A DNA stretch of 30,955 nt from the NCBI GenBank assembly GCA_026419775.2, contig JAOPGA020000631.1:1-30955 (forward strand). The letters are read 5' to 3'. The position numbers were made by a program, and so were the translations under genes. The DNA is from Acrasis kona (taxonomy: Eukaryota; Heterolobosea; Eutetramitea; Acrasida; Acrasidae). Position 1 is the stretch's first letter, and every line of letters begins with the position of its first letter. This document shows positions 1 through 24,162 of the stretch, in pieces. The notes beneath the pieces were generated by a model. It worked only from the letters and a program-made list of their open reading frames with translations, was not told the DNA's origin and made no database searches.

Positions 1-421
1 ATAATCGAACTTTAGCAACTCTCCAATGATCTTCAAAAATGAAACGAGTATCATTCCAACGTACACATTTATAATTTCATTCAACACAACATTCATCCAA
101 ATGTAAATGAATTATATCAGACTGAGTGATCCAATGATAACCACGGAAATTGATAAATGTCCATATTGACATACCAATGACGATAATCCTAATATAGTAC
201 TCGACTACACAATACTTCAACAAATTTACAAACGCACCCAAGAACCGACATGATAAAATTCATTAATGAAGAAATCACTAAAAGAATAAAACACTGAAAA
301 TCATATAATTCGTGTATTATTACTGTTTCCATAAGACTAACAGTAGTAACCTTATAACTAATTAAATGAGCTTTTGTAACTGGGACNAATATTTCATTCC
401 ATCGTTTACAATGAAGTAGGG
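1..421. other. A+T-rich left flank of the DIRS-type element, no gene seen
   Basis: No convincing coding stretch on either strand. The sequence is A+T-rich and has one ambiguous base (N) at 387. Directly before the N, TAACTGGGAC (377-386) is the same 10-mer found inside the hairpin array at the right end of the element (9432-9441). This may be a remnant of a terminal repeat, but a 10-base match could also be chance. I could not define the true left boundary of the element. Confidence 0.4.
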
Positions 422-430
422 TATAAATAG
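422..430 (+). promoter_or_regulatory. TATA box upstream of gag
   Basis: TATAAATAG lies about 70 nt before the gag ATG at 501. This spacing suggests that transcription begins near 450 and supports the ATG at 501 as the start, rather than the in-frame non-ATG codons further upstream. Confidence 0.5.
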
Positions 431-500
431 CGTGTGTGAATGATTTGTGTTAATTGTTCGAAAACAATACTTTCACACACACCATCATCATCATTTCATA

Positions 501-1739
501 ATGTCCTCTGGTTCCGCTATTTCTATTGTTGATGCATTCAAGGCTCTATTACCCAAGAATGGCATCACTCCATCTCAATATTATGCAGAAAAAGATATCG
601 CTGCTCTTGAGAGGCAATACAGAACAAAGTACAACTCTTTTCCTGAAGGTTACGAAGCACTGGAAGATGAACACAAACGCTATACGCTAATTGTGGGGCT
701 CTGGCAAAAGATTACCAGGCCAAGAAAGAAGAAAGCTAATGAGAGTGCTTCCGGTAGCGGGACAAATGAGGATCAAGAAGAAGAAGACGATGATGAGGAG
801 GAGGAACCACCTAAAAAGCGCACTAAAATATCTTTGAGCGTGGAGGATCTCCAAAAAATGATCTCCGATAGTGTCTCAAAAGGGATTGCGGAGGTTAAGG
901 CTGACGTTGAGTTGCGACTCTCCAAAGTCAACCAACAAAACAACGAAGAGTACGAAGAAGATGTAGGGCCGGTCGTAGTTGAATCAGACGAGGATGAAGA
1001 CGAAGATGACGATGAACAGGTCCCCGTCAAGCCCAAAGGCTCCGTTCTCAATTTGATGTCCTATAAGGATATCAAGGAGGGTGAACGATATGCGAAGATT
1101 ACGCATGAGTTCCCATTTTATAAGCCTATTCTCAAGAAAGGTTTGACAGACAATGGCCTCGAGCTATCCAGGTTCAGACCTGCAGTTGTTGATAAGGTTG
1201 TTGAGGATGCACCAACACACTTAAAGGAAGTCCTTCGTACATCTACCGAGGATACTTGTATTATTGGTAGAATAGCCGAGCATGCACTACATGGTTGCGA
1301 CATGATAGCACAGAAAGAGGGAGAGTCACCGTTCAACAACATTCTGTATGCGGCCCTTGTTCTCATCAGAGAAGTGGCTGAGAACAAAGTAGGGTTTGAT
1401 AGCAAGTTAGGCGGGGACATCACACACGCCAAGAAGGTAGCTGAGCATGTAAAGGACACGGAAGACATTCTTGGCCGATTTAATAAGAAGAGTGAAAATG
1501 TCCACAAGAAGACGAGCCAACAAAACATGAATGCGCTCTTGGCCCTCTTCGCCACAAACGGTCAAGGTCCCACTTCTTACTTTCCACCATCAAAACCCGC
1601 ACCTAACCCTGCTGCACCAAAAAATCCAAAAAAGGGAAATGGTGGTAAAGGTGACGACAAAAGAAATCCCAAAAGGAACGGGAATGGAGGAGGAGGAGGA
1701 AATCCGCCAAAGCGAAAGACCAAGGCAGAGAGAGGGTGA
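501..1739 (+). CDS. Gag-like ORF1 protein of the DIRS-type element
   Basis: A 412-aa protein from the first ATG after the TATA box. It has no recognised domain, but its position directly before RT and its composition fit a Gag. The N-terminal ~75 residues are helical and basic. Two very acidic stretches (roughly residues 93-105 and 155-175) flank a basic PPKKR segment that could act as a nuclear localisation signal. A central ~150-residue region looks folded. The last ~45 residues are Gly/Lys/Asn/Pro-rich and strongly basic, a plausible nucleic-acid-binding tail in place of a zinc knuckle. The stop is TGA followed by CTA, a context known from leaky UGA codons, and the same frame stays open for another 545 codons. 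The pol frame (+1) already overlaps the last ~200 nt. Confidence 0.7.
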   Translation: MSSGSAISIVDAFKALLPKNGITPSQYYAEKDIAALERQYRTKYNSFPEGYEALEDEHKRYTLIVGLWQKITRPRKKKANESASGSGTNEDQEEEDDDEEEEPPKKRTKISLSVEDLQKMISDSVSKGIAEVKADVELRLSKVNQQNNEEYEEDVGPVVVESDEDEDEDDDEQVPVKPKGSVLNLMSYKDIKEGERYAKITHEFPFYKPILKKGLTDNGLELSRFRPAVVDKVVEDAPTHLKEVLRTSTEDTCIIGRIAEHALHGCDMIAQKEGESPFNNILYAALVLIREVAENKVGFDSKLGGDITHAKKVAEHVKDTEDILGRFNKKSENVHKKTSQQNMNALLALFATNGQGPTSYFPPSKPAPNPAAPKNPKKGNGGKGDDKRNPKRNGNGGGGGNPPKRKTKAERG

Positions 1740-3377
1740 CTACTCTTCCCCAACAACACCACCTACACAAACAATGCCGACAGCACCATCACCGCAACCA
1801 ACGTCGATTGTTGCACCAAAGTCCATACCAACATTGACTACATCGACATTTCCACCACTGCTCCCAAAATCAGAATTTTACGGAGGAAGGATTTCGAAGT
1901 TTTGGAAAACATGGAAGGCTCTGGGCGTGTCCAAGAAGATCTACAAAACAGTCAAGCATGGTCTAATGTTAAAAACAAAGAACTTGATATACAAAGACAA
2001 GGGTATCAACGCCCCATTGACAGAGGACCAGCTACGCTGGCTGCAAGAACATATGGACAGTCTATTGGAAGTTGGCGCCATCCGACTAGCCAAGGAGGAA
2101 GAGTTGGATATTATTCTAATCTCTCCAATCCACCTAGTTCCAAAAAAGGACATTTGGAGGCTTATCATCAACCTTCGCACGATCAACGAGAACTTCGAGA
2201 CAATCAAATTCAAGATGGAAAGCGTGTCGGTGATAGCGCAAGCCATTCGGAAAGGCATGTGGGCCACATCATTAGATCTGGTTTCGGGGTACAATCACAT
2301 CAAGATTCACAAGAAATCCCAACACATTCTAGGATTCACATTTCTGAATCAAACATTTGTTTACAGGACACTACCGTTTGGTCTCAACATTGCCCCGAGG
2401 GAATTCACAAAAGTTGTATCGGCAGTGATTCAAATACTGAGAGGCGAGGGAATTCTTGTATTCTTCTACCTGGACGACATCCTGATCCTTGCACCCACAC
2501 AAGAGCTCTCGATTCAATGGACAGCAAGAACAGTCGAATTGTTCCAATCTCTTGGATTCATCATCTCAGAGGAGAAGAGTGTCCTCAAACTAACACAACG
2601 GATAGAGCATTTGGGTGTAATATTCGATTTGGAGAACGGATTGATTCAAATGTCGGAGCGAAAGATCGAAAAGATTATTGCCATGGCCAAGAGCATTCTG
2701 CCGAGGACTACTTTGGAAGACCGCACATTGGCAAAATTCATTGGAACAGTGAATTTTTCAACAATCGCCATTCCGTGGCTCCGTCCTTATTTATTCCAAA
2801 TGGGAAAAGAACTACAACTGTCAGTCAAAGCAAAAGGATGGACAAAGTACCTCAAGTTGTCAGTGGATTCCAAGAAGGACATCATGCACATTTGCGACAT
2901 GATTCGATCACACAACGGGATGCCATTCGAGATGGACCATCCATACCTAATCATGGCGACAGACAGTTCGAAACTGGCTTACGGAGGAGTGTGCAATGGA
3001 ATAGCGATGACGGGAAGATGGCCATCGGAGGAACAAGTGCAATCCATCAATCTGAGAGCGGTAGAGAAGATGATTCAAGAGTGCGTTCCAAAGTCACAAA
3101 CTCTACAACAACTCCACATCTTCACGGACAACAACACTTGCAAGAGCTACCTGGTCAAAGGGTACGGGAAGATTCCGCTGTTAAGGGAGACAGCCCAAAG
3201 AATCTACAAGATGTGCCAAGAGAGGAACATTTTAATCAGGAAGGTATCATACGTACCAACGCTCAAGAACGTGAAATCAGACAATCTGTCGAGAATGTCA
3301 GAAGAAGAGTTCGTAAGAATTCGACAAGAGTGTCAAAGACAGCAATGGAGTATCCAATCAAGGGTTTCAAACCGTAA
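1740..3377 (+). other. Gag frame left open across the whole RT/RNase H region after a TGA-CTA stop
   Basis: After the gag TGA (1737-1739) the same frame has no stop until TAA at 3375-3377, 545 sense codons lying entirely over the RT/RNase H coding region in another frame. The predicted peptide is hydrophilic (Ser, Arg, Gln, His, Asp, Glu) with no domain I recognise, which is what an out-of-frame shadow often looks like. Whether it is translated is unknown. It is listed because such a length is unexpected by chance and because of the readthrough-type context. Confidence 0.3.
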
Positions 3378-3847
3378 ATTCAACATTCGGTCCATTCCTT
3401 GTGGAACGTTTCGCATCAATTGCAGATCGTCACGAGGAGATTCCAAGATTCTGTTCAAGAGGAGATGTCATGAATTCGAGTTGGGAACACCCATTAACAG
3501 AAGCAGAGTGGGTGCCAGACGCATTCTTAGACGAGTGGGTCTCCCTGCCGGGTCAACCGCAGATGGAAAATTACTGCGTTCCGCCTCTTCCACTCATCAT
3601 GCGAACCATTTTACACATGGCAAAGTCCAAAAGCGTAGGAACAGTGGTAGTACCAAAATGGATATCAGCTCCGTGGTGGCCGGTACTGATGTGCATTGGC
3701 GTAAAATGGTTGGACGTAAGCCTATTCATAGAGCATCCAGAGGGTTCGGAAACGCTCAAGAATTCAGAGTGGGACAAATGGATAGCAGTCAAAGTGCAGG
3801 GAGCACGATACTTCGAGAATCATTGGAAGCAACTCGGCGTCAATTGA
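1774..3847 (+). CDS. DIRS pol: reverse transcriptase, RNase H and Dam-like methylase domain, one frame change
   Basis: This is the replication enzyme of the retrotransposon. The first reading frame, already open at 1531 inside gag and with an ATG at 1774, carries the RT: a GGR-containing N-terminal region near 1880, LVPKK near 2135, TSLDLVSGYNHI, TLPFGL near 2370, and the catalytic YLDD at 2467-2478. RNase H follows, with TDSS near 2960, a TDNN segment near 3125 and the closing SDNLSR near 3280. Near 3355 the homology moves to the +1-shifted frame. There a Dam-like domain, typical of DIRS elements, begins (TFGPFLVERFAS, then PDAF, VPPLPLI, and P-W...WW) and ends with TGA at 3847. The usual NPPY/F methylase motif reads VPPLP, so methyl transfer is doubtful. 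The frame change may be a disabling indel or a programmed shift. The start codon is uncertain. Confidence 0.8.
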
Positions 3848-4198
3848 TGGCTGGTTCACTCACAGAAGGTACATTGAAGAAGTACGAGGGTGAATGGAAC
3901 AAATTTGTCACGTATTGTGAATTTAATGACGTATCTGAGTTTCCTGCCTCAGTGGAGACATTGGAGTCGTACATGTATTACATGTTAGGTGAAGGCAGAG
4001 GTGCCAGCATCGGTACAATGAAAGCCTCAGTGAGTTATCACCACTACAAGAACAACCATCCCACCCCAGCAAACGACTATCGTATACCAATAGCTGCGAG
4101 ATTATGCAACAAATTTTGGAAAAAGAATTGCAAAAAGCTTCGTCGCGATCCTTTCCCACTTGTAGCGTTAAAGGTATACGCCGCGACCATTTACAATC
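3847..4198 (+). pseudogene. Tyrosine recombinase, N-terminal core-binding domain (5' half of a split gene)
   Basis: ATG at 3847 overlaps the pol stop as TGATG, so translation by termination and re-initiation is plausible. About 117 residues match the SAM-like core-binding domain of DIRS tyrosine recombinases: LTEGTLKKYEGEWNKF, a second helix with SVETLESYMYYM, and a basic segment ending RRDPFPL. In the intact family a catalytic domain with the R, H-x-x-R and Y residues follows at once. Here the frame instead runs into an unrelated proline-rich tail at the ACAATC word 4193-4198. The missing catalytic domain is found at 8549-9088 in the same reading frame. Alone, this half cannot recombine DNA. 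Confidence 0.75.
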
Positions 4199-4611
4199 AA
4201 CCCATCTCCGCTGCGCCTATGCTCACAAAACCACCACCGCCCAATCAACCACCACCGCCCATCACACAACCACCGCCACCGCCTCCACCACCAACACAAC
4301 CACCTCCAGCCCCCACAACTGCTCCATATCCCTATTTCATGCCGCCACCACCAGTCATGGGTGGTCATCCACCAGGTATGTTACCTCCATTCATGCCATC
4401 ACCACTCGGCATGCCACCACCTCCAGGTATCATTTTTCCACCTCAATTTGGCGGACTCATGATTCCTCCACCTCCTTTTGCAAACAGCTCTCCTGTTCCT
4501 CCCATGATACAACCAATCATTACGAGATCAAATTCCACATCACCTCCTCCTCCGGTAGTGCCCATGTCGACGAATGTAACGTCGCAGAGGATGAACAAGG
4601 TCATTAAATAA
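4199..4611 (+). pseudogene. Proline-rich C-terminal fragment fused in frame to the recombinase half
   Basis: The reading frame of the recombinase half continues without a stop into about 137 codons rich in proline, methionine and glycine: long PPPP runs, repeated M-PPPP and P-G-M, then a Ser/Thr-rich end. Poly-proline of this type occurs in actin regulators and splicing factors that bind SH3, WW or profilin, but nothing here identifies the parent gene. I take it as the 3' end of a host gene brought in with the island, the in-frame fusion being accidental. The codons CCA/CCG/CCT are mixed, as expected of coding sequence rather than a simple repeat. An AATAAA follows 62 nt after the stop, so a chimeric transcript could be properly ended. 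Confidence 0.5.
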
Positions 4612-4948
4612 GTATGTCTACATGTTTTTTTTCAATCTATAAAATGTTTTATTTTGAACAATTCATGACGTGAATAAATCTATTGAAACCTCCAATATGA
4701 TTGTTACATATTGCGGCGCCGTTGTTTTATGAGTCAGCGTTGAATCTTCGAAGCCATTGCAGCTATTTTGTATAATATTATCTTCGTGTTTATATTCTAT
4801 AAAGGTGCTCAGTTGTCTTCTTGATCTTGTAATATCGAAGACATTAAATTATAAATCTTCAACCTTTCATCTTGTAATATCACGACTTAATGTACTCTGA
4901 AAATAGATCTTAAAATCAGCCAAGGAACGCCGAAAAGAACAATACATA
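4612..4948. other. Intergenic stretch with poly(A) signal
   Basis: No coding stretch seen. It has AATAAA at 4673-4678, suited to end the proline-rich transcript, and then A+T-rich leader sequence for the ankyrin gene. Confidence 0.4.
4673..4678 (+). terminator. AATAAA poly(A) signal behind the proline-rich fragment
   Basis: Canonical hexamer 62 nt after the TAA stop, preceded by a T-run. It matches the short 3' untranslated regions seen elsewhere in the window. Confidence 0.4.
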
Positions 4949-5833
4949 ATGCGATTAAAACGTTTTTTTAATAAAAAAAGCCTAGAACAGGATGAGGATC
5001 AATACTGCTCTAGAAAAAGAATTAAAAGAGAACACGAAAATAAAACAGATCCACCTGTGCCTGCGGAAAATACTAACATTAAAGCGCTTCCAATAGAATT
5101 GTGGACAATTATTGTAGAGTTTTATTTGGAAGACCAAGATTTTAATGGTTATCCAACCAGCGCAGGGCGAGGCCAACGATACCAGAATTTCATTTGCCAA
5201 TTAAATGTTTTGTACTCGATTAACAAGGAGATGAAGGAAATATATGACGTTTTTATTAATAAATGTTATCAAAACAATTCAGAACCAGACGCAATAGAAA
5301 AGATATTTGAAGAAGAAAGAATAGAAGTTATCAGATGTTTTTATAAAAAGTTGAAAGGGTTTGAACGTCTTCATAAGCTAATGAAATATGGATTTTTAGA
5401 AAGAACAGGGTATGATGAAATAATGCAAGTACAGAAAGAAGAAGACAAACTCATCAACGAAGTCAAAAGATTGTTAAAAGATGATCAAATTATTGCCAGC
5501 AAACATAGTAGTTATATCATAACCTGTGCTTGTAAAATTGGATCGGCAGATATTGTTCAATTTCTCATCAACCACAAAGATATTGATTCATCATTAATTA
5601 AGAACTATGCTATCGGAGTTGCTAGTTGCGAGGGACATAAAGATGTTGTTGCACTACTTCTCAATGATCCAAGTGTTGATCCATCTGCATTTGATAACTA
5701 TGCTATCAGAAAAGCTAGTAGGCATGGACACAAAGATGTTGTTGCGCTACTTCTCAAAGATTCACGTGTATTCTATCTGCAGTTAAGAACTATGCTAGCA
5801 GAGAAGTTTAAAAGAAAATATTCAAAGATGTAG
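4949..5833 (+). CDS. F-box-like/ankyrin repeat protein, frameshifted in its last repeats
   Basis: A predicted 294-aa protein. It has a basic N-terminus, then around residues 47-90 a segment (LPIELWTIIVEFYL...) that resembles an F-box, then a helical middle. From about residue 190 it has ankyrin-type repeats with the protist signature NYAI-x-x-AS-x-x-GHKDVVALLL-x-D. Such proteins often recruit substrates to SCF ubiquitin ligases, but that role is inferred. Near 5775 the repeat frame is lost by a small indel: the shifted frame continues the expected pattern (SAVKNYASREV, then after further damage KDVVELSLNDPRV up to about 5870). The reported C-terminus is therefore an artefact of decay, or the gene is a recent pseudogene. 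Confidence 0.6.
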   Translation: MRLKRFFNKKSLEQDEDQYCSRKRIKREHENKTDPPVPAENTNIKALPIELWTIIVEFYLEDQDFNGYPTSAGRGQRYQNFICQLNVLYSINKEMKEIYDVFINKCYQNNSEPDAIEKIFEEERIEVIRCFYKKLKGFERLHKLMKYGFLERTGYDEIMQVQKEEDKLINEVKRLLKDDQIIASKHSSYIITCACKIGSADIVQFLINHKDIDSSLIKNYAIGVASCEGHKDVVALLLNDPSVDPSAFDNYAIRKASRHGHKDVVALLLKDSRVFYLQLRTMLAEKFKRKYSKM

Positions 5834-5883
5834 TCGAGTTATCACTTAATGATCCACGAGTTCAAAGGGAATTCTTTCGACGC

Positions 5884-6476
5884 CCAAAATCGATTTTTTT
5901 TAACCCCCGTATTGATTTCAAGGCTTTTACCCCTAAAAAAATTGATCTAAAATTTTTCGCATGCGACTGTCAAGACTGAAGCGAAGAAGGACAATAGGTT
6001 CAATAAATTTTTGCTTTTATTACCCCATGCGTCGTTGATAAAATCTTACCCCTATGCTGCACCGTCTCTAGAGCTAATGAATTTTCTGCAGCCGCCGATA
6101 TGGAAATGATATTCCTGAGTTTGTGTTTGATGGTGAGTTTCTGTTCGTCGAATAGTTATCACCAAGTTGCTAATATTTAGTAATATAAAGTTTTAAATTG
6201 CCTCTGTTGGCTCACGACCATAAAAACTTGTTTGAAATTTATGTGTTTTGTATAAAGTTTTGAACAATCTATTCTTAATGTTTAATGATTAAATAAGAAG
6301 AATCCTAGTCAAACACTCAAAGATGTCTTTTTGTAAACTAAAGAAAATTGAACCTTCAAAAAGAAATTACGTCACATTGCGATGTGTTCAACTGGAATGC
6401 TTTGTCACAGGTTTCTTTCATATAAACAAAACCAAATGATTTGTGAGTTCAACAAAATAAAAATACAAACAACGAT
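5884..6476. other. Intergenic stretch, no gene recognised
   Basis: A+T-rich with T-runs and several short frames, none with convincing coding character. It separates the decaying ankyrin gene from the Rab pseudogene. Confidence 0.35.
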
Positions 6477-7256
6477 ATGAATTCCTCATGGGATTACGAC
6501 TACGTCTGCAAAATTGTTGTTGTAGGAGACGCGGGGTGAGGAAAATCTAGCATGCTTATGCGGTACATTGACTCTGAATTTCATACCGACATGCTTACGA
6601 CAATTGGCGTTGATTTTAAACTCAAAACAATGGAGGTAGATGGAAAGATTATAAAAGTACAGTTTTGGGATACAGCTGGACAAGAGCGCTTCAAGAGCAT
6701 AGTTTCAGGTTATTATCGTGGTGCTGATGGTGTGCTTGTTACATATGATGTTACAAACAATAGCTTCTACAACGTACCAAGGTGGTTGAATGAAATTCAT
6801 TAAGGAAGTGGTAGAGACACAAAGATTATGCTAGTGGCTACAAAGTGTGACGATGTTTACAACAGAGTCATAGATAGACAAAAGGGAGAGGAGCTGGCAG
6901 CACGACACAACATTCCTTACATTGAGACTAGTGCTAAAAAAAACATGAACATTGACGAATGCTTTGATGGCATTGTAAACAACGTGATAAAATCTGACTT
7001 TATTACATCCAAGAGAGCCAAAACAGCTCTATTCGTGAGGAGTCGATGTGCTTTGGCTCCAATGGTTGCTCTATTATGTAACGACTTATATACTGTCATC
7101 AAAATAAATATGTTTTCTCAACAATTGGAGGCCCTGGGTAATAAATATTTTATTTTATTTTATTATTTACCATACTCCAAAACACTCCTCCACCAAGAAG
7201 TAGCAATTCTCTTGGTCTGCCATTTTGAACGACCTTACCATCACTCATCACAATGA
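6477..7256 (+). pseudogene. Rab-family small GTPase pseudogene with two in-frame stops
   Basis: One continuous frame from ATG 6477 encodes a Rab-like G domain: P-loop region VVVGDAG-x-GKSS, switch I TTIGVDFK, the WDTAGQERFKSI switch II typical of Rab8/Rab10-like proteins, KCD in place of NKxD, and ETSAKK. Rabs direct vesicle transport at membranes. The x of the P-loop is a TGA stop (6537-6539), and a TAA (6801-6803) interrupts the helix before the guanine-binding loop. Every other gene here uses TGA and TAA as stops, so a different genetic code is unlikely. After about residue 170 the sequence loses Rab character and lacks the C-terminal cysteines needed for prenylation. It lies tail-to-tail with the ABC pseudogene. 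Confidence 0.85.
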
Positions 7257-8548
7257 CACGATAATCCATAATTGTTTCTAGTCGATGTGCAATGCAAATC
7301 ACTGAACAATTGGAGAATTCTCTCCTGATGGTACTTTGGATTAATGCATCTGATGCATAATCAACATTTGCAGTGGCTTCGTCGAGTATTAGTGTTTTAC
7401 AACCCTTGAACAAGAATATAGAAGAGGTATAATGGCAGCGATTAAACCAACTCCATAGAGATGAGACATTCCAAAAGCGATCGAACCAATAATAAACAAG
7501 GACACTATCAAATTACAACTAATCGAGATTAAATAACGAGCATCAGATCCGAGGTGATCTAATCGATTCATATCCTTACTGAATCTAGAAATAATCTTGC
7601 GGGAGGATGTATGATCGTAGAATTGAACCGGAGCACGCACAATGGACTTTAACAGTCCGACATGATACCGTTTATTAGTTTGAAGCATGTAGTGACCACC
7701 AAGAGCATTGGAGAAGATTTTCAAAATGGTAGAAACGACTCCAAATCCATTGTAGAGAGAAACAGGATTATTAACAGAAGTGCTCCAATTAGCCAAGTAC
7801 CAATCACTAACAGTCATAAATACTTTATAACCCAATTCCAAAACAATAATAACAACAAATAAACATACGTTGTAATTAGTAACGTATTCACCTGTAATTT
7901 ACTTTTATCGTCATCAGGAATTAATTTATTATTTTCAACGCCAACTACCTCTTCATCACTTTCGCTAACTGGCTCTTCATCATCAGACAATGATCCAAGG
8001 TCATCACTACAGGTCAATGACTCATTTTCATTTTTTTGAGTTCTGGACATATTGATAGCAAATTCACTATTCAACAATTCATCAAAAGAAGAAAAAACAC
8101 TTTGGATCGCTCCATCATCAATTACAACAATTTTATTAGCTTTTTCTAACATATTAAGGTGATGGGTCACCAAAATACGTGTTTTATCATCTAATAACCC
8201 AAGTATTAACTGATTCATGATATGCCTACCAGTATCAACGTCCACTGCAGATAATGGATCGTCCATCACGATCAACTCGCATTGATTTATTCTATAAGCA
8301 GCTCTAGCTAAATTCAATCTTGATTTTTGACCACCACTTAACATGACGCCGCACTCGCCTACAACCGTTTCATCTCCATTGGAGAATTGCTCCAAATCTA
8401 CATCAAGATGACACGCTTTGATGATCGACTCGTACAAAGCGTCAACGAGATTTTCTTTACTACCGAATAAAATATTATTGCGAATGGTATCGCTTTTTAT
8501 CCAACCATCTTGCGAAGAATAAATCAAAGGGCATGAGCGAATTTGTTC
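7150..8548 (-). pseudogene. ABCC-type (MRP-like) ABC transporter pseudogene, truncated, frameshifted and internally deleted
   Basis: Reading leftward from 8548, the first nucleotide-binding domain starts only at the Q-loop (YSSQDGWI). It then shows the signature LSGGQKSR, Walker B IVMDDPLSAVD and the H-loop in VTHHLNM. The acidic linker (DDLGSLSDDEEP) and the start of the second membrane domain follow, with SDWYLANWST near 7790. A frame change lies around 7850-7870. Near 7410 membrane-domain sequence jumps straight to the Walker B of the second nucleotide-binding domain (TLILDEATANVD), so Walker A, Q-loop and signature are missing, a deletion of probably 200-250 codons. The first membrane domain and first Walker A are cut off at the island junction. 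It cannot encode a working pump. Confidence 0.85.
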
Positions 8549-9088
8549 ACAATCGTAATATTGCATTTATATCCAATTGCTTTAGAGGTATGATGCGCGC
8601 AAGCGAGATTGTTAAAGCAGTGGGCGATTCGATCTCGTTTGAAACGAGGGACGATTTTAGATACATCAACTGGGATCTGGGTGTCACTAAGACGGACTTG
8701 AAGGGTGTTGACTCTGAAGTTCCGGTCGACGAGGGAAGCTCAGACTCGATAATATGCCCATACAAGAGCATGCTGACTTATCTCGAGTATTATCGGTTGA
8801 AATTCGGTGAACTGGGTAGTAACGATCGCATTTTCGTGAAGGAAGATGGCTCTCCTATGGTCACAAAAGACGTGACCGAAATTATCAAGGAGATGATTTG
8901 GAACGCTGGTTTAACCGTACAATGTAGTGCCCACTCATTGAGATCGGGTGGCGCTACAGCAGCTGCAAAAGCGGGTACCGATTGGAGTTATCATGGCTGT
9001 TGGTAGATGGAAGTCTGAGTGTGTACTTCGCTACATCAGAGCAATCTGCGCCGCTGCAAAGAGGTNATCGAAAACTTTAGAGATGTAA
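8549..9088 (+). pseudogene. Tyrosine recombinase, catalytic domain (3' half of the split gene), frameshifted near its end
   Basis: This half begins in the ACAATC word and the same frame as the 5' half. Motif I is FRGMMRASEIV with the first catalytic Arg. Box II is AHSLRSGGATAAA with the H-x-x-R pair. In intact proteins a GRWKS segment and a nucleophilic Tyr follow. Here the first frame ends at TAG 9004-9006 soon after box II, but the frame shifted by one near 8985 reads MAVGRWKSECVLRYIR, giving the expected Trp and Tyr, and ends in TAA at 9086-9088. The enzyme would cut and rejoin circular element DNA during integration. One N (9066) lies in the last codons. The frameshift may be real or a base error. 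Confidence 0.8.
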
Positions 9089-9092
9089 TAAA
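9087..9092 (+). terminator. AATAAA overlapping the recombinase stop codon
   Basis: The TAA stop is embedded in TAATAAA, so the poly(A) signal starts inside the stop codon. The same arrangement is seen at 19829-19835. It implies that the hairpin array further right lies outside the main recombinase mRNA. Confidence 0.45.
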
Positions 9093-9142
9093 TTTGGTGG
9101 TTTTATTTCTTCTCTGTTGATTCATTATTCCTCGAATAATGT

Positions 9143-9523
9143 GTAGCTTTATAGCTACTAGATTGGATTTAAGTAATCCCAGAGTTATTACATACATTAC
9201 CATAACTGGAACCGTTATGTAACTGGTTTTGATCCATGAATGATGGGGTAATTCCAGAGTTATAACACAAGTGGTTGGTGTTGTGTTACTGGTTCTCGCT
9301 ATTTTATAGCCTAGTTACATAATTTGATTCATTCCAGAGTTATTACAAACTACCTGCACGGGCTTGTTTGTAACTGGTTCTGATCACAATGTCTAATTGT
9401 GGTAATTCCAGAGTTATTACATACAATACCATAACTGGGACTGTTATGTAACTGGTTTTGATCCATAAATGATGGGGTAATTCCAGAGCAATTATATTTA
9501 ATACTGTTAGGTTATATAACTGG
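9143..9523 (+). repeat. Tandem array of five bulged palindromes alternating with small hairpins
   Basis: Five units start at 9179, 9254, 9334, 9408 and 9483 (spacing 75, 80, 74, 75). Each runs from CCAG to CTGG. Inside come a constant unpaired 5-nt insert, AGTTA (AGCAA in the last), and an inner stem: TTACATA/TATGTAA, TAACACAA/TTGTGTTA, TTACAAAC/GTTTGTAA, TTACATA/TATGTAA and TTATAT/ATATAA. Inner stems differ between units but stay paired. The spacers carry their own hairpins: GTAGCT/AGCTAC (9143-9158), CCAT/ATGG, GCTAT/ATAGC, CACAAT/ATTGTG and CCAT/ATGG, usually framed by TTYTGAT and GGTAATT. The array sits about 90 bp after the recombinase stop. Maintained pairing with changed bases suggests a selected fold in single-stranded DNA or RNA. 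Confidence 0.8.
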
Positions 9524-9679
9524 TTCTCATAGATATTCTACCATATGTGTAAGTGTGCGAACTGCTGGTAGTTTTATCGAAGGTATTGTTAACAGTTTAA
9601 TCTGTTTTTCAGCTGACTGAGAATTAGCTATGTTGACGTGTTATGTCTCTGCTATTCTCGGGTCAAGTTTCTTGGGCAG

Positions 9680-9706
9680 TGCTAGCAATCACAGTTGATG
9701 CTAGCA
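9680..9706. repeat. Duplicated palindrome TGCTAGCA
   Basis: The self-complementary 8-mer TGCTAGCA occurs at 9680-9687 and again at 9699-9706, 11 bp apart. The two copies can pair with themselves or with each other. It may be a protein site or chance; it lies downstream of a minus-strand coding exon. Confidence 0.35.
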
Positions 9707-9755
9707 TTCTCGGTAGGTGCATTTTGTAAATTGCGAATTAAATTAGTAGATAAGG

Positions 9756-9935
9756 TTACGCCAGTTTACCAACTTCCGCACCACTTTCAAGACCATACAT
9801 AGATCCTTTTGTTCCCAGAACAACTCCAATCACCCCTAACAAACTCACCCAGGCCTAGAAGTAAGAAATCCAGACATGAGGACACATTTACTTCTCCAAC
9901 CATTCCGCCCGCTCCCTCCTGATGAACCTCAACGC
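9756..9935 (-). CDS. Probable 3' exons of a small membrane-protein gene
   Basis: A terminal exon (9854 to 9756) encodes AWVSLLGVIGVVLGTKG followed by 15 more residues and a stop, with one hydrophobic helix. It is preceded by a 37-nt intron-like segment (9855-9891, GTAAAT...CTTCTAG), the usual intron size here. The exon before it (about 9892-9935) reads in frame as GVEVHQEGAGGMVGE. A stop lies just upstream of that, so another intron or a break is needed there, and I could not find the start. Family unknown. Treat it as a lead rather than a finished gene model. Confidence 0.3.
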
Positions 9936-10078
9936 CATCTTATAACAACACCACACCTTGACTTGCACATTGTTTGCCCTCACGGGAGTAGTGCCTAGTC
10001 CATGTAAATCTCAATTTAAATAAATATTACGTTTATTATCTTTATTTTCCTTAATTCAAATATCTTTTCATTGGAGCC

Positions 10079-10961
10079 CTAACCATCATCAGGAAACAGA
10101 CCTGTCTCCACACTCTGACCAAAAGCTGTGATCTGCGTAAAGAAGACCGTTTCATTTGAATCCTCCTCGATATAACATTCCTACGCTGTCTCCACCTGTT
10201 TTGTGGCTAGCTGGCAATCAGTCGTAATAGTCTCTTAGGGCGGGCCTCTTCCTGAAATCTCTCTTATTCCTTGCCCTCTCATAATACCTCATGCAGCCTG
10301 TACAATCACAGCTTTCAGTTATAAATTTAGTGTCATATCTGTCTGAGTCGAACTGTGATTTTTAACCGTGCCTTCAAAAAGTCATCAATGTTATTTGAAA
10401 CTTTTTTTGTTCGGACTGTGTGTAGTCTGCTATAAATTATTTTACATGTAATTGTCACCTATAAATGTCAGTTGCCAAGTCAACATGAATGGGTGACACG
10501 TTTGAATCATTTCCTGCCACATTAGAGTGGTGATTTGCAACTAATTTAACTTCTGTGCTCTTGTTCTTATTTTCATCTGTAAACTAGACAAGTTTTATAA
10601 AACTACAATCGGAATTAAATTACATCCTTCCGTAAAGTATTTGATGCATCTCCTTCGGTTTTTACTTCGAATCCGAACGTTTCTTTTAGGTTGGTGCGTC
10701 ACTTGATTGTGAATTTTGATTAATTCTCTCATCGAATAGAACTCTAATCATTTTTTGATAATGTCCATTTGTGCATGCAGGCATACAGCCGATCCTGAGT
10801 TTAATAGTTCCTGTAAGACTGATCTGATTCAATGTTCATGGTTTGTGTTATGCCCTTAGTTAACGACTTTATGGGGCATTGGAAACTCTTTATTTTGATT
10901 CCCCTTCTCCATTAAACTCAAACTGGTGTTGATGTTGCTGATGTCGTAACCGACATTCTCG
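10079..10961 (-). CDS. Unrecognised multi-exon gene with seven or more tiny introns (5' end and final join unresolved)
   Basis: No single long frame exists, but removing 28-41-nt GT-AG segments joins coding-like exons. Probable introns are 10824-10864 (41 nt), 10665-10702 (38), 10584-10623 (40), 10427-10458 (32) and 10339-10366 (28). The first exon seen begins at 10961 after a TTTCAG acceptor. Peptide landmarks in order: SENVGYDISNINTSLS, RIGCMPACTNGHYQKM, GDASNTLRKD, NHHSNVAGNDSN, NNIDDFLKARYDTKF, ESCDCTGC (possible metal site), then FFTQITAFGQSVETGLFPDD before TAG at 10079-10081. Between about 10300 and 10170 no splice pattern keeps one frame, so the gene may be damaged or use an intron I missed. 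I do not recognise the family. Its 5' part runs toward the promoter of the RCC1 gene, head to head. Confidence 0.45.
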
Positions 10962-20979: not shown

Positions 20980-21308
20980 ACGTAAGAGAAAAATGTCCAA
21001 GATGCAATGCTAAAGGAGCAATTAGTTTGTTTGGGAGAACGGATGTGAAAGTGGTTACACTTTGTGTGTTGTTTTGGAAGATGCTTTATAATACCAGAGA
21101 AGAAGAACCAACATGTGAAGTTTAAAAAAGAAGGAAACGTAATCCTTTTTCGTCGATGAATGAACTAAAATTGATGTATAAAGTCCCAATTTAGTACTAA
21201 TGAATGATTTTGACCGGCCATAATTTGATTTGAATCACCACTCCGGTTGATGTGACATAAATTCTTTTGTCAATTGGGTATTCTCACACAAAGCAACTAA
21301 AACAATCG

Positions 21309-22136
21309 ATGAGGTCAAGTCTAGTCATCTTGTTACTCATCGCAGCATTCGTTACACAGTGTATCGCAGCTGACTCTCTGCGTGTTGGATCATTTAACAT
21401 TCAGGTATTTGGTACAAAAACAATGTCGAAGCCACACGTAGTTACATTGTTAACAAAGATACTCTCAAGATATCACATTGTATTTATTCAAGAAATCCGT
21501 GACCATACCAATACTGCATTGGAAGAACTAGTTAAGACCACAAATGAAAACCAAGGCACAAACTTTGAATACGTGGTGAGCGAGAGATTAGGGAGATCTG
21601 CAAGCAAAGAGCAGTATGCCTATATTTACGATCCTACTCGCCTTACTGTTCTTTCAACATACCAATTTCCAGACGAGAACGATTGGTTTGAAAGACCACC
21701 CTACTCCATAGCCATTGAGAGCAAGCATAATGGAAGAAAACTATTCCTGACTGGTATCCATGTTAAACCAAGGGATGCCGTTGCAGAGATCGACCACCTT
21801 GTTGATGTATATGACTTCTACATCGGATCAAACAACATCAACCAAGGTTGGATATGCATGGGTGATTTCAACGCTGGTGGTAGTTATGTTGCAGAGTCAG
21901 ATATGGAGAGTATCAGACTTCGCCAGATGTCAGACAGGTTTGAATGGTTAATTAAGGATGGTACTAGGACTACTGTTTCAGAACACAACTACGCCTACGA
22001 CCGATTTGTGGTAGACACTATGGTATCTGGAACAGCGGATGTTTTCCGGTTCGATTTGTCTATGAGAATATCAATCGAAGAGGCAAGAGAAGTTTCTGAT
22101 CATTTCCCTATTGAAATGGTTGTCAAGGACTTTTAA
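21309..22136 (+). CDS. Secreted DNase I-like endonuclease
   Basis: A predicted 275-aa protein. ATG 21309 is chosen because it starts a clean signal peptide (hydrophobic LVILLLIAAF, small residues before ADS), giving a mature enzyme close to the usual DNase I length of ~260. Family motifs appear in order: GSFNIQVFG, FIQEIRD with the catalytic Glu, YAYIYDP, TGIHVKP with a catalytic His, MGDFNAGGSYV with the metal-binding Asp, YDRFVV, and the final SDHFPIEM catalytic His. DNase I enzymes cut double-stranded DNA with divalent metal. A secreted form would fit digestion of food bacteria, an inference from the signal peptide. No introns. AATAAA sits a few bases after the stop at 22143-22148. Confidence 0.93.
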   Translation: MRSSLVILLLIAAFVTQCIAADSLRVGSFNIQVFGTKTMSKPHVVTLLTKILSRYHIVFIQEIRDHTNTALEELVKTTNENQGTNFEYVVSERLGRSASKEQYAYIYDPTRLTVLSTYQFPDENDWFERPPYSIAIESKHNGRKLFLTGIHVKPRDAVAEIDHLVDVYDFYIGSNNINQGWICMGDFNAGGSYVAESDMESIRLRQMSDRFEWLIKDGTRTTVSEHNYAYDRFVVDTMVSGTADVFRFDLSMRISIEEAREVSDHFPIEMVVKDF

Positions 22137-22589: not shown

Positions 22590-23459
22590 TTAATTGTTAC
22601 GAAGAGACATAATTTCTGTTTTCATCGCTACGCTGGGAGGTACGTAAGAATATTTGCCGCGTCTTCTGTTGTTGGAGAACCCTAGAGGTATAAGCGTAAT
22701 GGTGCAATGGTACTTACATGTTTCAATTTGCTTCTTGGTTAGATTTGTCATATCTGCCAGCTGCATCTTTTGATCATCTGTTGGGTATGGTGATTCAATA
22801 TTATTATTGAACCATGTTGTAAGAACTTGTTTTTGTTCGTCAGTGTAAATGTTCTTTTTTCTTTTGCCATCCTCTTGGTCATCTTCCCTAGCTCTTTTCA
22901 AAGAATTAACACTCCCAACAGCATTGATTCTTTCTTCAGATTCTTGTTCCCCCTGCATCCTAATTTGGTGTAACATAAATTCTCCACATTTAGAGTACCA
23001 GCTTTTTATTAGTTTACTGGCTTCTTGGAGTATCAAAACTTCACTTGACTCAATTGTTGTAGATTGGGATAAAATTTTCTCGGACTCTTCCAAATATGAT
23101 ATTAAAACTTCATCCAAATATACCCTAAAGGTGTTTGTATCTACGCCGATATCGTTGCTGATGAGTCTGCTCATCATATTTATTTTATCTTGATATGGTT
23201 TGAGTACCTCTATCCAAGTGCTAACTATATATGAAAACAGTCTACTCGCGCTCATCATTGGATGTAGCGTAAGAAGAATATCAGTTATTCTATCTTGTTC
23301 TTGTAGACAAGCCTCACTTACACCAGATCCTGTAAAACAATTAACTTCATCAATCAGAGTTGATGAGATGTCATCATTCATAAAGAAGACATCTGTTGAT
23401 TCGAAATCGCACAAGAAGCAAGACAAATTGTTGTGCTGTTCGCATGGTATGTCCAGCAT
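22590..23459 (-). CDS. TALE-class homeodomain protein 1
   Basis: A likely transcription factor. The CDS is interrupted by a 36-nt intron (22682-22717) inside the homeodomain. Without splicing, the third helix is broken by 12 stray residues. Splicing creates the missing Trp codon and gives IETWFSNNRRR, the WF-x-N-x-R core of helix 3. The loop between helices 1 and 2 has ESPYP, the three-residue extension with PYP typical of TALE proteins. An ATG at 23459 with an A+T-rich leader is taken as start; the frame is open a little further upstream but without ATG. The first ~210 residues are acidic and helical, with a Cys-rich CEQHNNLSCFLCDF near the start, and may mediate dimerising. KRAREDDQEDGKRKK just before the homeodomain is a probable nuclear localisation signal. 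Confidence 0.85.
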   Translation of the reverse strand: MLDIPCEQHNNLSCFLCDFESTDVFFMNDDISSTLIDEVNCFTGSGVSEACLQEQDRITDILLTLHPMMSASRLFSYIVSTWIEVLKPYQDKINMMSRLISNDIGVDTNTFRVYLDEVLISYLEESEKILSQSTTIESSEVLILQEASKLIKSWYSKCGEFMLHQIRMQGEQESEERINAVGSVNSLKRAREDDQEDGKRKKNIYTDEQKQVLTTWFNNNIESPYPTDDQKMQLADMTNLTKKQIETCKYHCTITLIPLGFSNNRRRGKYSYVPPSVAMKTEIMSLRNN

Positions 23460-23580
23460 ATTTATTATATTAGGAAATATCCTAAATGGGTTGGCTACAA
23501 ACCAACCTGGTTCCAACGAGCAAATCAATGAGATGGGATAGGATTGATCGCTATGAACACAAACGAATTAATAATTATAA

Positions 23581-24162
23581 CTATTTATTCCTTGTTCTTT
23601 TATTTACAAACCACCGTTTTATCTTTCTATGGTCTAGTCCTGTCTGCTGAGATAGCATTTCTAATTCAAGTTCGTTTGGGTAAGGATGGTCAATATGCGC
23701 CATAAACCATTGATGCAAGAGGTTAGTGGCCTCTCTAGGTATGAAAACGTGTTGACGTGTAGAAGTAGTTTTGGTTTGATTGTGACTGGACAAGCATTGC
23801 AAAAACATAGACTCTATATCTGTTATCATTTGAGATCTTCTCAACTCAAAATTCGTATGAATGCCCTGGTGAAGCTCTACTAAGCTCTGAATTCTTTCAA
23901 TTTTGTCCATAATGACAAGTGTCAGATTTGCCCAAACTGACATGGCATTGTCATAGCTCCTCAAGTTTGGGTAATGTTTTTCAAGATATTTCAAAGCTAG
24001 GTCTTTATCTTGGGTAATTAAGAATATATCAAATTTTTCAGTTTGTTGTTTGGGACTTGCAATGAACTGAGGATTGATGAGATCATAATCTTCCTCTAGT
24101 CCTTTAGCGTCGTTATTCAAGGAGTAGAAGATTGCATCCCAGTCGAGCTCACTCGTCATCAT
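23581..24162 (-). CDS. TALE-class homeodomain protein 2
   Basis: A 193-aa protein, start taken at the first of two adjacent ATGs (24162). The C-terminal homeodomain has HIDHPYPNELELEML (PYP loop of TALE class) and KIKRWFVNKRTRN at helix 3, and the protein stops right after it. The N-terminal ~125 residues are acidic and helical, with a layout similar to homeobox gene 1 although sequence identity looks low, so the pair may be an old tandem duplication. No intron is needed. TALE proteins commonly act as heterodimers, and this neighbour pair would be natural candidates, but that is inference. The two genes are in the same orientation, separated by about 120 bp. Confidence 0.88.
   Translation of the reverse strand: MMTSELDWDAIFYSLNNDAKGLEEDYDLINPQFIASPKQQTEKFDIFLITQDKDLALKYLEKHYPNLRSYDNAMSVWANLTLVIMDKIERIQSLVELHQGIHTNFELRRSQMITDIESMFLQCLSSHNQTKTTSTRQHVFIPREATNLLHQWFMAHIDHPYPNELELEMLSQQTGLDHRKIKRWFVNKRTRNK

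What the first reader, a model, noticed from the sequence alone, without database searches (positions are those of the whole stretch)
9143..9523. Array of bulged palindromes with compensating stem changes next to a tyrosine recombinase, formally like integron attC arrays
Five units spaced 74-80 bp share outer arms CCAG/CTGG and a one-sided unpaired 5-nt insert (AGTTA, once AGCAA), while their inner stems differ in sequence yet remain fully paired. Spacer hairpins change the same way (GCTAT/ATAGC, CACAAT/ATTGTG, CCAT/ATGG). Changed bases with kept pairing point to selection on a fold, not on plain sequence. The array lies past the recombinase poly(A) signal. Conserved ends, variable inner stems and an extrahelical bulge are what folded single-stranded integron attC sites show, and DIRS elements also move through single-stranded/circular DNA. 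That it is a recombination substrate is my inference; a structured RNA or a replication site are alternatives.
Basis: partly seen in the sequence, partly recalled or inferred. Interest (0 to 1): 0.85.

Follow-up and report, generated by a model that had tools for sequence, protein, structure and literature searches.

The report
Bulged-hairpin array in a recombinase retrotransposon
A mobile element in an amoeba-like protist carries a row of five small hairpins whose letters change but whose fold is kept, probably as a folded signal in the element's own RNA rather than as a bacterial-integron-like recombination site.

Summary
Window 9143-9523 carries five units (spacing 75, 80, 74, 75), each CCAG + one-sided 5-nt insert + 6-8 bp inner stem + CTGG. 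Shuffles give a mean of 0.35 such hairpins, maximum 2 in 60. Unit 4 is a recent copy of unit 1. Among the distinct units 4 stem pairs are fully compensated (random-substitution P = 2.5e-6); the innermost pair is broken in 2 of 6.

The array lies in the 3' non-coding part of a tyrosine-recombinase (YR) retrotransposon with split direct repeats (PAT/Ngaro/VIPER-like), between YR and repeat B1. The host looks heterolobosean. The window copy is dead.

The array was found at two loci, both this element. Other YR families of the genome carry differently built hairpins at the same place, two with compensated stems; several show no excess.

The attC reading is not supported: the element ends lie at A1/B termini with inverted ATAAGGTTA/TAACCTTAT arms. 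I favour a folded sense-strand RNA signal of the full-length transcript; this is inferred, not shown. The searches made found no paper describing such arrays in YR retrotransposons.

The parts
317..575 (+). Repeat A1: left end of the element (TTATTACTGTTTCC...), with TAACCTTAT arm at 347-355
   Evidence: Same left end after different flanks in copies on other contigs; 262 of 264 aligned bases identical to the C115 copy; matches A2 of C737 at 79%; arm position
447..1739 (+). Gag-like ORF (430 aa, no Pfam match; 'gag-like' from position only)
1531..4182 (+). Pol-like region with reverse transcriptase (PF00078) and the N-terminal part of the YR; the stretch shared with C642 ends at 4182
4183..8511 (.). 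4.3 kb that interrupts the YR (ankyrin, Ras and ABC-transporter pieces); insertion or misassembly; absent at this point in the C642 copy
   Evidence: C642 runs on across this point; Pfam
8512..9084 (+). C-terminal part of the YR (PF00589, E = 4.5e-7 on ORF 8533-9006); frame broken before the end
9087..9092 (+). AATAAA, possible poly(A) signal of the YR transcript
   Evidence: sequence; also after the YR in C642, C480, C509, C946, C560 and C737
9123..9141 (+). First hairpin CATTATTC-ctc-GAATAATG
9143..9158 (+). Hairpin GTAGCT-ttat-AGCTAC
9165..9179 (+). Hairpin GGATT-taagt-AATCC (same in C642)
9179..9226 (+). Unit 1: CCAG-AGTTA-TTACATA...TATGTAA-CTGG
9234..9246 (+). Spacer hairpin CCAT-gaatg-ATGG
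9254..9292 (+). Unit 2: inner stem TAACACAA/TTGTGTTA (two compensated pairs)
9298..9310 (+). Spacer hairpin GCTAT-ttt-ATAGC
9334..9377 (+). Unit 3: inner stem TTACAAAC/GTTTGTAA (one compensated pair)
9383..9403 (+). Spacer hairpin ATCACAAT-gtcta-ATTGTGGT (one T-G pair)
9408..9455 (+). Unit 4: recent duplicate of unit 1
9463..9475 (+). Spacer hairpin CCAT-aaatg-ATGG
9483..9523 (+). Unit 5: bulge AGCAA, inner stem TTATAT/ATATAA (one compensated pair)
9580..9758 (+). Repeat B1, right end of this copy (ATAAGGTTA at 9750-9758); TCTCGGTA at 9708-9715

Best explanation
The array is a structured, cis-acting 3' non-coding segment of a YR retrotransposon with split direct repeats. It grew by tandem duplication of a hairpin unit, and selection kept the fold (outer 4 bp, one-sided 5-nt bulge, inner stem) while letting stem letters change. 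In this element it lies beyond an AATAAA that follows the YR and before B1 (B1-A2-B2 in the sister subfamily). I infer that it is present only in the read-through, full-length RNA and not in shorter mRNAs. There it would act as folded sense-strand RNA bound by the element's own protein (Gag or RT), marking the full-length RNA for packaging or for start of cDNA synthesis. Shown: anatomy, compensation, association with this YR element, differently built hairpins at the same place in some other families. Inferred: that RNA is the folded molecule, who binds it, and what for.
For: Bulged hairpins 5 against 0.35 by shuffling, and only on the coding strand. Four compensated pairs, none one-sided in pairs 1-6, P = 2.5e-6. 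The 5-nt asymmetric bulge is kept in all 6 units aligned, which suits recognition by a partner.

The same interval in some other YR families of the genome holds other compensated hairpins. C491: hairpins with an invariant GC-CAC-GC loop and different stems, with C317 relatives, covariation 0.595 against 0.221 +/- 0.068 shuffled, 0 of 500. C946/C560 against C509: one hairpin with loop AGGCGACAnGCG and stems CTGTGGA/TCCACAG against ATCTAGA/TCTAGGT, all 7 pairs kept after 7 changed columns, P = 0.0016. Both sets were picked by eye, so these figures are generous. Just before the split repeats a hairpin abutting CTCGGT is clear in 4 of 8 elements compared (C946, C737, C999, C491: 1, 2, 5 and 16 of 300 shuffles as high); summed over all 8, 34 WC pairs against 9.8 +/- 4.1, max 24 in 300.

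Non-WC pairs in hairpins of the 13 regions scanned are 37 G-T against 13 A-C; the shuffle means sum to about 26 and 20.
Against: No transcript, protein-binding or mobility data. The G-T excess is modest, some of the 13 regions are near copies of each other, and chance hairpins are included. In the window units the stems are all Watson-Crick, so they say nothing about strand. The fold excess of the window array is larger with DNA than with RNA energies (z = -4.99 against -3.18; -3.69 against -2.22 without span limit). AATAAA follows the YR within 260 nt in only 7 of 16 loci (window, C642, C480, C509, C560 and both C946 loci), and the second C946 locus is a truncated YR; so the 'only in read-through RNA' step cannot be general. 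Not every YR family shows local-fold excess: C342 z = -1.23, C1007 -0.87, C575 -1.38, decayed C642 copy +1.16 (DNA). By plain hairpin pairs only 4 of 13 regions exceed shuffles (C491, C317, C737, C1007: 0, 0, 2, 3 of 100); the window does not (17 of 100). The nearest sister subfamily C737 has at this place, besides hairpins, a run of CCAnnnnTGG repeats with 3-bp arms that I read as a short direct repeat. Only one further locus carries the window-type array, and it retains one intact unit.
Confidence: 0.4

Rival explanations
1. attC-like: folded single-stranded units (of cDNA or a circle) are bound by the element's YR and serve as recombination or accessory sites.
For: Outer arms conserved, inner stem variable, extrahelical bases kept on one side; the array was found only next to this YR; as single-stranded DNA it folds well on either strand (z = -3.69, z = -3.92), better relative to shuffles than as RNA (z = -2.22).
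Against: Element ends fall at A1 and B, not in a unit; the termini carry inverted ATAAGGTTA/TAACCTTAT arms 30 bp apart at the B1/A2 junction of C737, as a YR site would. No significant similarity of the array to A1 or B1. Other families with YRs have different hairpins at this place. The 28-nt deletion in C317 against C491 runs between two GCCACGC repeats, which plain slippage explains; a second loss of 8 nt there has no obvious repeat.
Confidence: 0.11
2. Double-stranded binding sites: the repeats are clustered palindromic sites for a DNA-binding protein (promoter, silencer or recombinase accessory site).
For: The sister subfamily C737 has a run of AATCCAnnnnTGGTGT repeats in the same place, three of them exactly 20 bp apart; four of the five window units also begin TCCA (unit 1 CCCA), and all are followed by TT after TGG.
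Against: Unit length in the window varies from 39 to 48 bp, so the half-sites are not at a fixed distance, and inner stems change in a compensated way, which a fixed dimer site would not need.
Confidence: 0.2
3. Mutational origin: template switching keeps rewriting one arm from the other, so palindromes stay perfect without selection, and tandem duplication spreads them.
For: Compensation alone does not tell selection from arm-to-arm correction; unit 4 shows recent duplication; small perfect palindromes are seen near other element copies in this genome.
Against: Such correction should also remove the one-sided 5-nt bulge, which is kept in 6 of 6 units. 361 stretches of 400 nt from 16 held sequences of this genome (element copies included) average z = -0.31, with 11 at or below -3, so hairpin excess is not general. 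The defective C642 copy has lost local fold (z = +1.16), though its array is also shortened.
Confidence: 0.19
4. Chance repeats, or a satellite with no function, captured by one element.
For: Only two loci carry this array, both defective copies.
Against: The compensation statistics and the parallel hairpins in other families.
Confidence: 0.1

Closest known systems
Split-direct-repeat YR retrotransposons (PAT, Ngaro, VIPER)
   Same: RT and YR genes; A1 at the left end, B1-A2-B2 at the right in the sister subfamily; A1/B1/A2/B2 scheme as described for VIPER in PMC6681497 (passage seen) and for PAT/Ngaro in PMC4157794 (passages seen)
   Different: A hairpin array between YR and B1; the words hairpin, stem-loop and palindrom do not occur in the main texts of PMC3783388, PMC6681497 and PMC4157794
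DIRS1-like elements
   Same: YR plus RT; a few bases shared at the circular junction (3-bp motif per PMC3266345, passage seen)
   Different: DIRS1-like elements have inverted terminal repeats and internal complementary regions (PMC3266345); this lineage has split direct repeats and only a 22-26 bp inverted stretch at its ends
Integron attC arrays (recalled)
   Same: Tandem folded units with conserved ends, variable inner part and extrahelical bases, near a YR gene
   Different: Not the ends of the mobile unit here; 5-nt one-sided bulge; no cassettes; eukaryotic retroelement
Retroviral packaging signals (e.g. MMTV, PMC8096270, start of abstract seen only)
   Same: Folded cis element that sets full-length RNA apart; works-like comparison only
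   Different: Here at the 3' side, a tandem array, no binding data

Membership tests
YR retrotransposon with split direct repeats (PAT/Ngaro/VIPER-like) | Reverse transcriptase and tyrosine recombinase in one element | tested here: met
   PF00078 and PF00589 matches; C642 joins the two parts that the window has 4.3 kb apart, though it lacks the counterpart of window 3782-4041 and its YR has stops
YR retrotransposon with split direct repeats (PAT/Ngaro/VIPER-like) | A1 left, B1-A2-B2 right | tested here: met
   In the sister subfamily: C737 A2 identical to C964 A1 over 246 of 246, B1 to B2 over 41 of 41. The window copy itself ends after B1 and lacks A2-B2
YR retrotransposon with split direct repeats (PAT/Ngaro/VIPER-like) | Placement within PAT, Ngaro or VIPER by RT tree or methyltransferase domain | not tested
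   Pfam gave only RVT_1 for the pol ORF; no tree was built
DIRS1-like | Inverted terminal repeats plus internal complementary regions | tested here: not met
   A and B repeats are direct; minus-strand comparison of the ends finds only 22-26 bp inverted stretches at the terminal arms. No complete copy was held
Integron attC site | Crossover of the mobile unit lies in the folded site | tested here: not met
   Element ends lie at A1 and B termini; this is inferred from copy ends, no crossover was observed
Integron attC site | Core sites (RYYYAAC/GTTRRRY, recalled) at the base of the hairpin | tested here: inconclusive
   Unit ends are CCAG/CTGG; read by eye, no motif search run
Integron attC site | Recombinase recognises the folded single strand | not testable with these tools
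   needs binding assay
Known RNA families (Rfam 15) | Match at or above the gathering score | tested here: not met
   One match below threshold in window 8500-10500 (SCARNA7, 14.2 bits against 65, E = 0.9); none in 12 related loci

The most novel reading that the evidence does not exclude
YR retrotransposons of this lineage carry, between recombinase gene and split repeats, fast-changing hairpin arrays, and at least one family's recombinase handles them as folded single strands of cDNA, as integron integrases handle attC. To my knowledge (recalled, not searched exhaustively) that would be the first eukaryotic case of recombination on folded single-stranded DNA by a retroelement YR.
Probability: 0.08. 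Interest if true: 0.9.

Novelty: new variant of a known kind. Interest (0 to 1): 0.55.

Why it matters
How YR retrotransposons pick out their full-length RNA and start cDNA synthesis is, as far as I recall, little known. A short, fold-conserved segment at a fixed place, built differently in different families, gives a concrete candidate for that signal. It can be tested by probing, binding and deletion, and the natural compensated variants serve as controls.

Tried and rejected
Similarity of the array to the element ends: rejected, local alignment scores no better than shuffles (as high in 186 of 500 for A1 +, 333 for A1 -, 185 for B1 +, 42 for B1 -). Known RNA family: none at threshold. Viral contigs encoding a close YR relative: none by pattern. 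General hairpin excess in this genome: rejected as a full explanation, although the strongest of the 361 stretches lies elsewhere (window 23201-23600, z = -5.25). Spread of the unit to other loci: model R1 finds the window's 5 units and one in C642 among 42 sources, the other 4 rows being chance-level (E 1.3-7.9); pattern search finds 4 exact matches, all at these two loci. AATCCAnnnnTGGTGT gives 18 genome matches against 3 for the reversed control, of which 4 cluster (C737). Bulged hairpins in other regions: mostly at shuffle level. Two further relatives, C842 and C137, were fetched and, read by eye, showed no intact hairpin array. One search had a parameter error (energy tables lagged by one call) and is not used; replace it. 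Protein search with the YR found one relative, 55% identical, on a 3000-base unnamed contig, whose DNA I did not fetch.

For the first of these I lowered the best reading from 0.42 to 0.40 and spread the rest over the rivals.

Papers: search listings; passages of PMC5633606, PMC6681497, PMC4157794, PMC3266345, PMC3537659; no passages matched in PMC3783388 and PMC11589745. No paper was read whole. The statement that such arrays are unreported rests on these searches alone.

Full report
What is there. The window is contig C306 of an unnamed 37.35-Mb assembly in 1021 contigs. A DNase-like host protein at 21267-22136 has as nearest named relative a protein of Acrasis kona, 70% identical. I therefore take the host as a heterolobosean near Acrasis, an inference from one protein.

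The array. Five units stand at 9179-9226, 9254-9292, 9334-9377, 9408-9455 and 9483-9523, with spacing 75, 80, 74 and 75. Each is CCAG, a 5-nt one-sided insert, an inner stem of 6-8 bp, a loop, the inner stem again, and CTGG. A scan for such bulged hairpins finds these 5 in 9120-9720, against a shuffle mean of 0.35 and a maximum of 2 in 60 shuffles, and none on the minus strand. Small hairpins stand in the spacers (CCAT/ATGG read). Counted as plain hairpins the region is not in excess (63 pairs against 49.8 +/- 13.4, 17 of 100 shuffles as high): the signal lies in the bulged form. Unit 4 and its spacer are a 94% copy of unit 1 and its spacer, so there are four independent unit types.

Compensation. 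On the five units plus the one intact unit of contig C642, inner pairs 1-6 show four double changes and no one-sided change. Pair 7 is broken in 2 of 6 sequences. The covariation score is 0.230 against 0.072 +/- 0.041 (0 of 500 shuffles). One slid register (-3) reaches 0.188, with only 48.5% of cells paired. If the observed numbers of changes fell at random on the 14 inner-stem columns, four or more compensated pairs would occur with P = 2.5e-6 (5 of 2,000,000 trials). This test takes unit 1 as ancestor and leaves out unit 4.

Fold energy. With pairs limited to 60 nt, 9120-9530 has z = -4.99 as DNA (0 of 200 shuffles) and -3.18 as RNA (1 of 200). 73 control stretches of the window have mean -0.40 and minimum -3.04 as DNA. 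The value depends on the frame: 9201-9600 gave -2.57 with 25 shuffles, within a set of 361 stretches of mean -0.31 and sd 1.27 that includes element copies.

The element. Left end at 317 (A1), gag-like ORF, RT, YR, AATAAA at 9087-9092, array, B1 to 9758. In the sister subfamily the full right side B1-A2-B2 is seen in C737. A2 equals A1 of C964 over 246 of 246 bases, and B1 equals B2 over 41 of 41. At the B1/A2 junction ATAAGGTTA and TAACCTTAT face each other 30 bp apart. This is how a YR exchange site would look, an inference. The window copy is dead: 4183-8511 interrupts the YR at a point where C642 runs on, and the frame is broken before the end. C642 is defective too: stops in the YR and no counterpart of window 3782-4041.

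Distribution. DNA search finds the array at C306 and C642 (the tool calls its counts lower bounds). Four exact pattern matches lie at these two loci. The unit model finds 6 good matches in 42 held sources, 5 in the window and 1 in C642. The C642 array is shortened and decayed.

The same place in other YR families. The genome search gave 20 YR matches, which I place at 16 loci: the window, C642 and 14 others whose downstream sequence I read. C491 has four hairpins with the loop GC-CAC-GC and one with GC-CTT-GC, on differing stems. With C317 relatives the score is 0.595 against 0.221 (0 of 500). These units were picked for their look, so this number is generous, though all four GCCACGC occurrences of the C491 array are included. 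C946/C560 and C509 share a hairpin loop with different, fully paired stems. C342 has a differently registered hairpin there (read). Among 8 elements with CTCGGT before the split repeats (near copies left out), an abutting hairpin is clear in C946, C737, C999 and C491 and not in the window, C642, C509 and C342 (68, 80, 51 and 35 of 300 shuffles as high); summed, 34 pairs against 9.8 +/- 4.1. Against generality: C342, C1007 and C575 have no significant local-fold excess; 9 of 16 loci show no AATAAA within 260 nt after the YR match; several loci are truncated after the YR; C737 has a run of short CCAnnnnTGG repeats besides its hairpins.

Which molecule folds. Non-Watson-Crick pairs in the hairpins of 13 regions are 37 G-T and 13 A-C on the coding strand; the shuffle means sum to about 26 and 20. 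This leans towards the sense strand, modestly. The larger z with DNA energies leans the other way. In this element the position beyond AATAAA means, if that signal is used, that only read-through RNA holds the array. I therefore favour a cis signal of the full-length RNA. The attC-like reading is left at low probability for the reasons given.

Known or not. Split-direct-repeat YR elements are known. In the searches, and the passages seen, I saw no hairpin array described in them. Hence: new variant of a known kind.

Noticed in passing
window 4183-8511: A 4.3 kb stretch with ankyrin, Ras and ABC-transporter pieces splits the YR gene at a point where the C642 copy runs on; insertion or misassembly.
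   Followed up: partly
L023, L031, L034, L044 (clear); window 9698-9715, L026, L027, L030 (weak): A short hairpin with family-specific stem abuts CTCGGT just before the split repeats; the following GGTAAGT/GGTATAT also resembles a 5' splice site.
   Followed up: partly
L044 540-700: B1 has TTTTTCAG near its start and CGGTAAGTG near its end, as if an exon lay between splice sites.
   Followed up: no
L034 4370-4600 and L074 1515-1680: Array of hairpins with loop CAC and differing stems; the C317 relative has lost 28 nt between two GCCACGC repeats, and 8 nt inside another hairpin.
   Followed up: yes
L044 244-387: Run of AATCCAnnnnTGGTGT repeats, three of them exactly 20 bp apart.
   Followed up: partly
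window 23201-23600: Strongest local-fold z (-5.25, 25 shuffles) of 361 stretches; overlaps an ORF (22590-23528, minus strand).
   Followed up: no
L026 and L033, downstream of the YR: Repeated perfect hairpins of the kind TGCACGC-AA-GCGTGCA near the split repeats.
   Followed up: no
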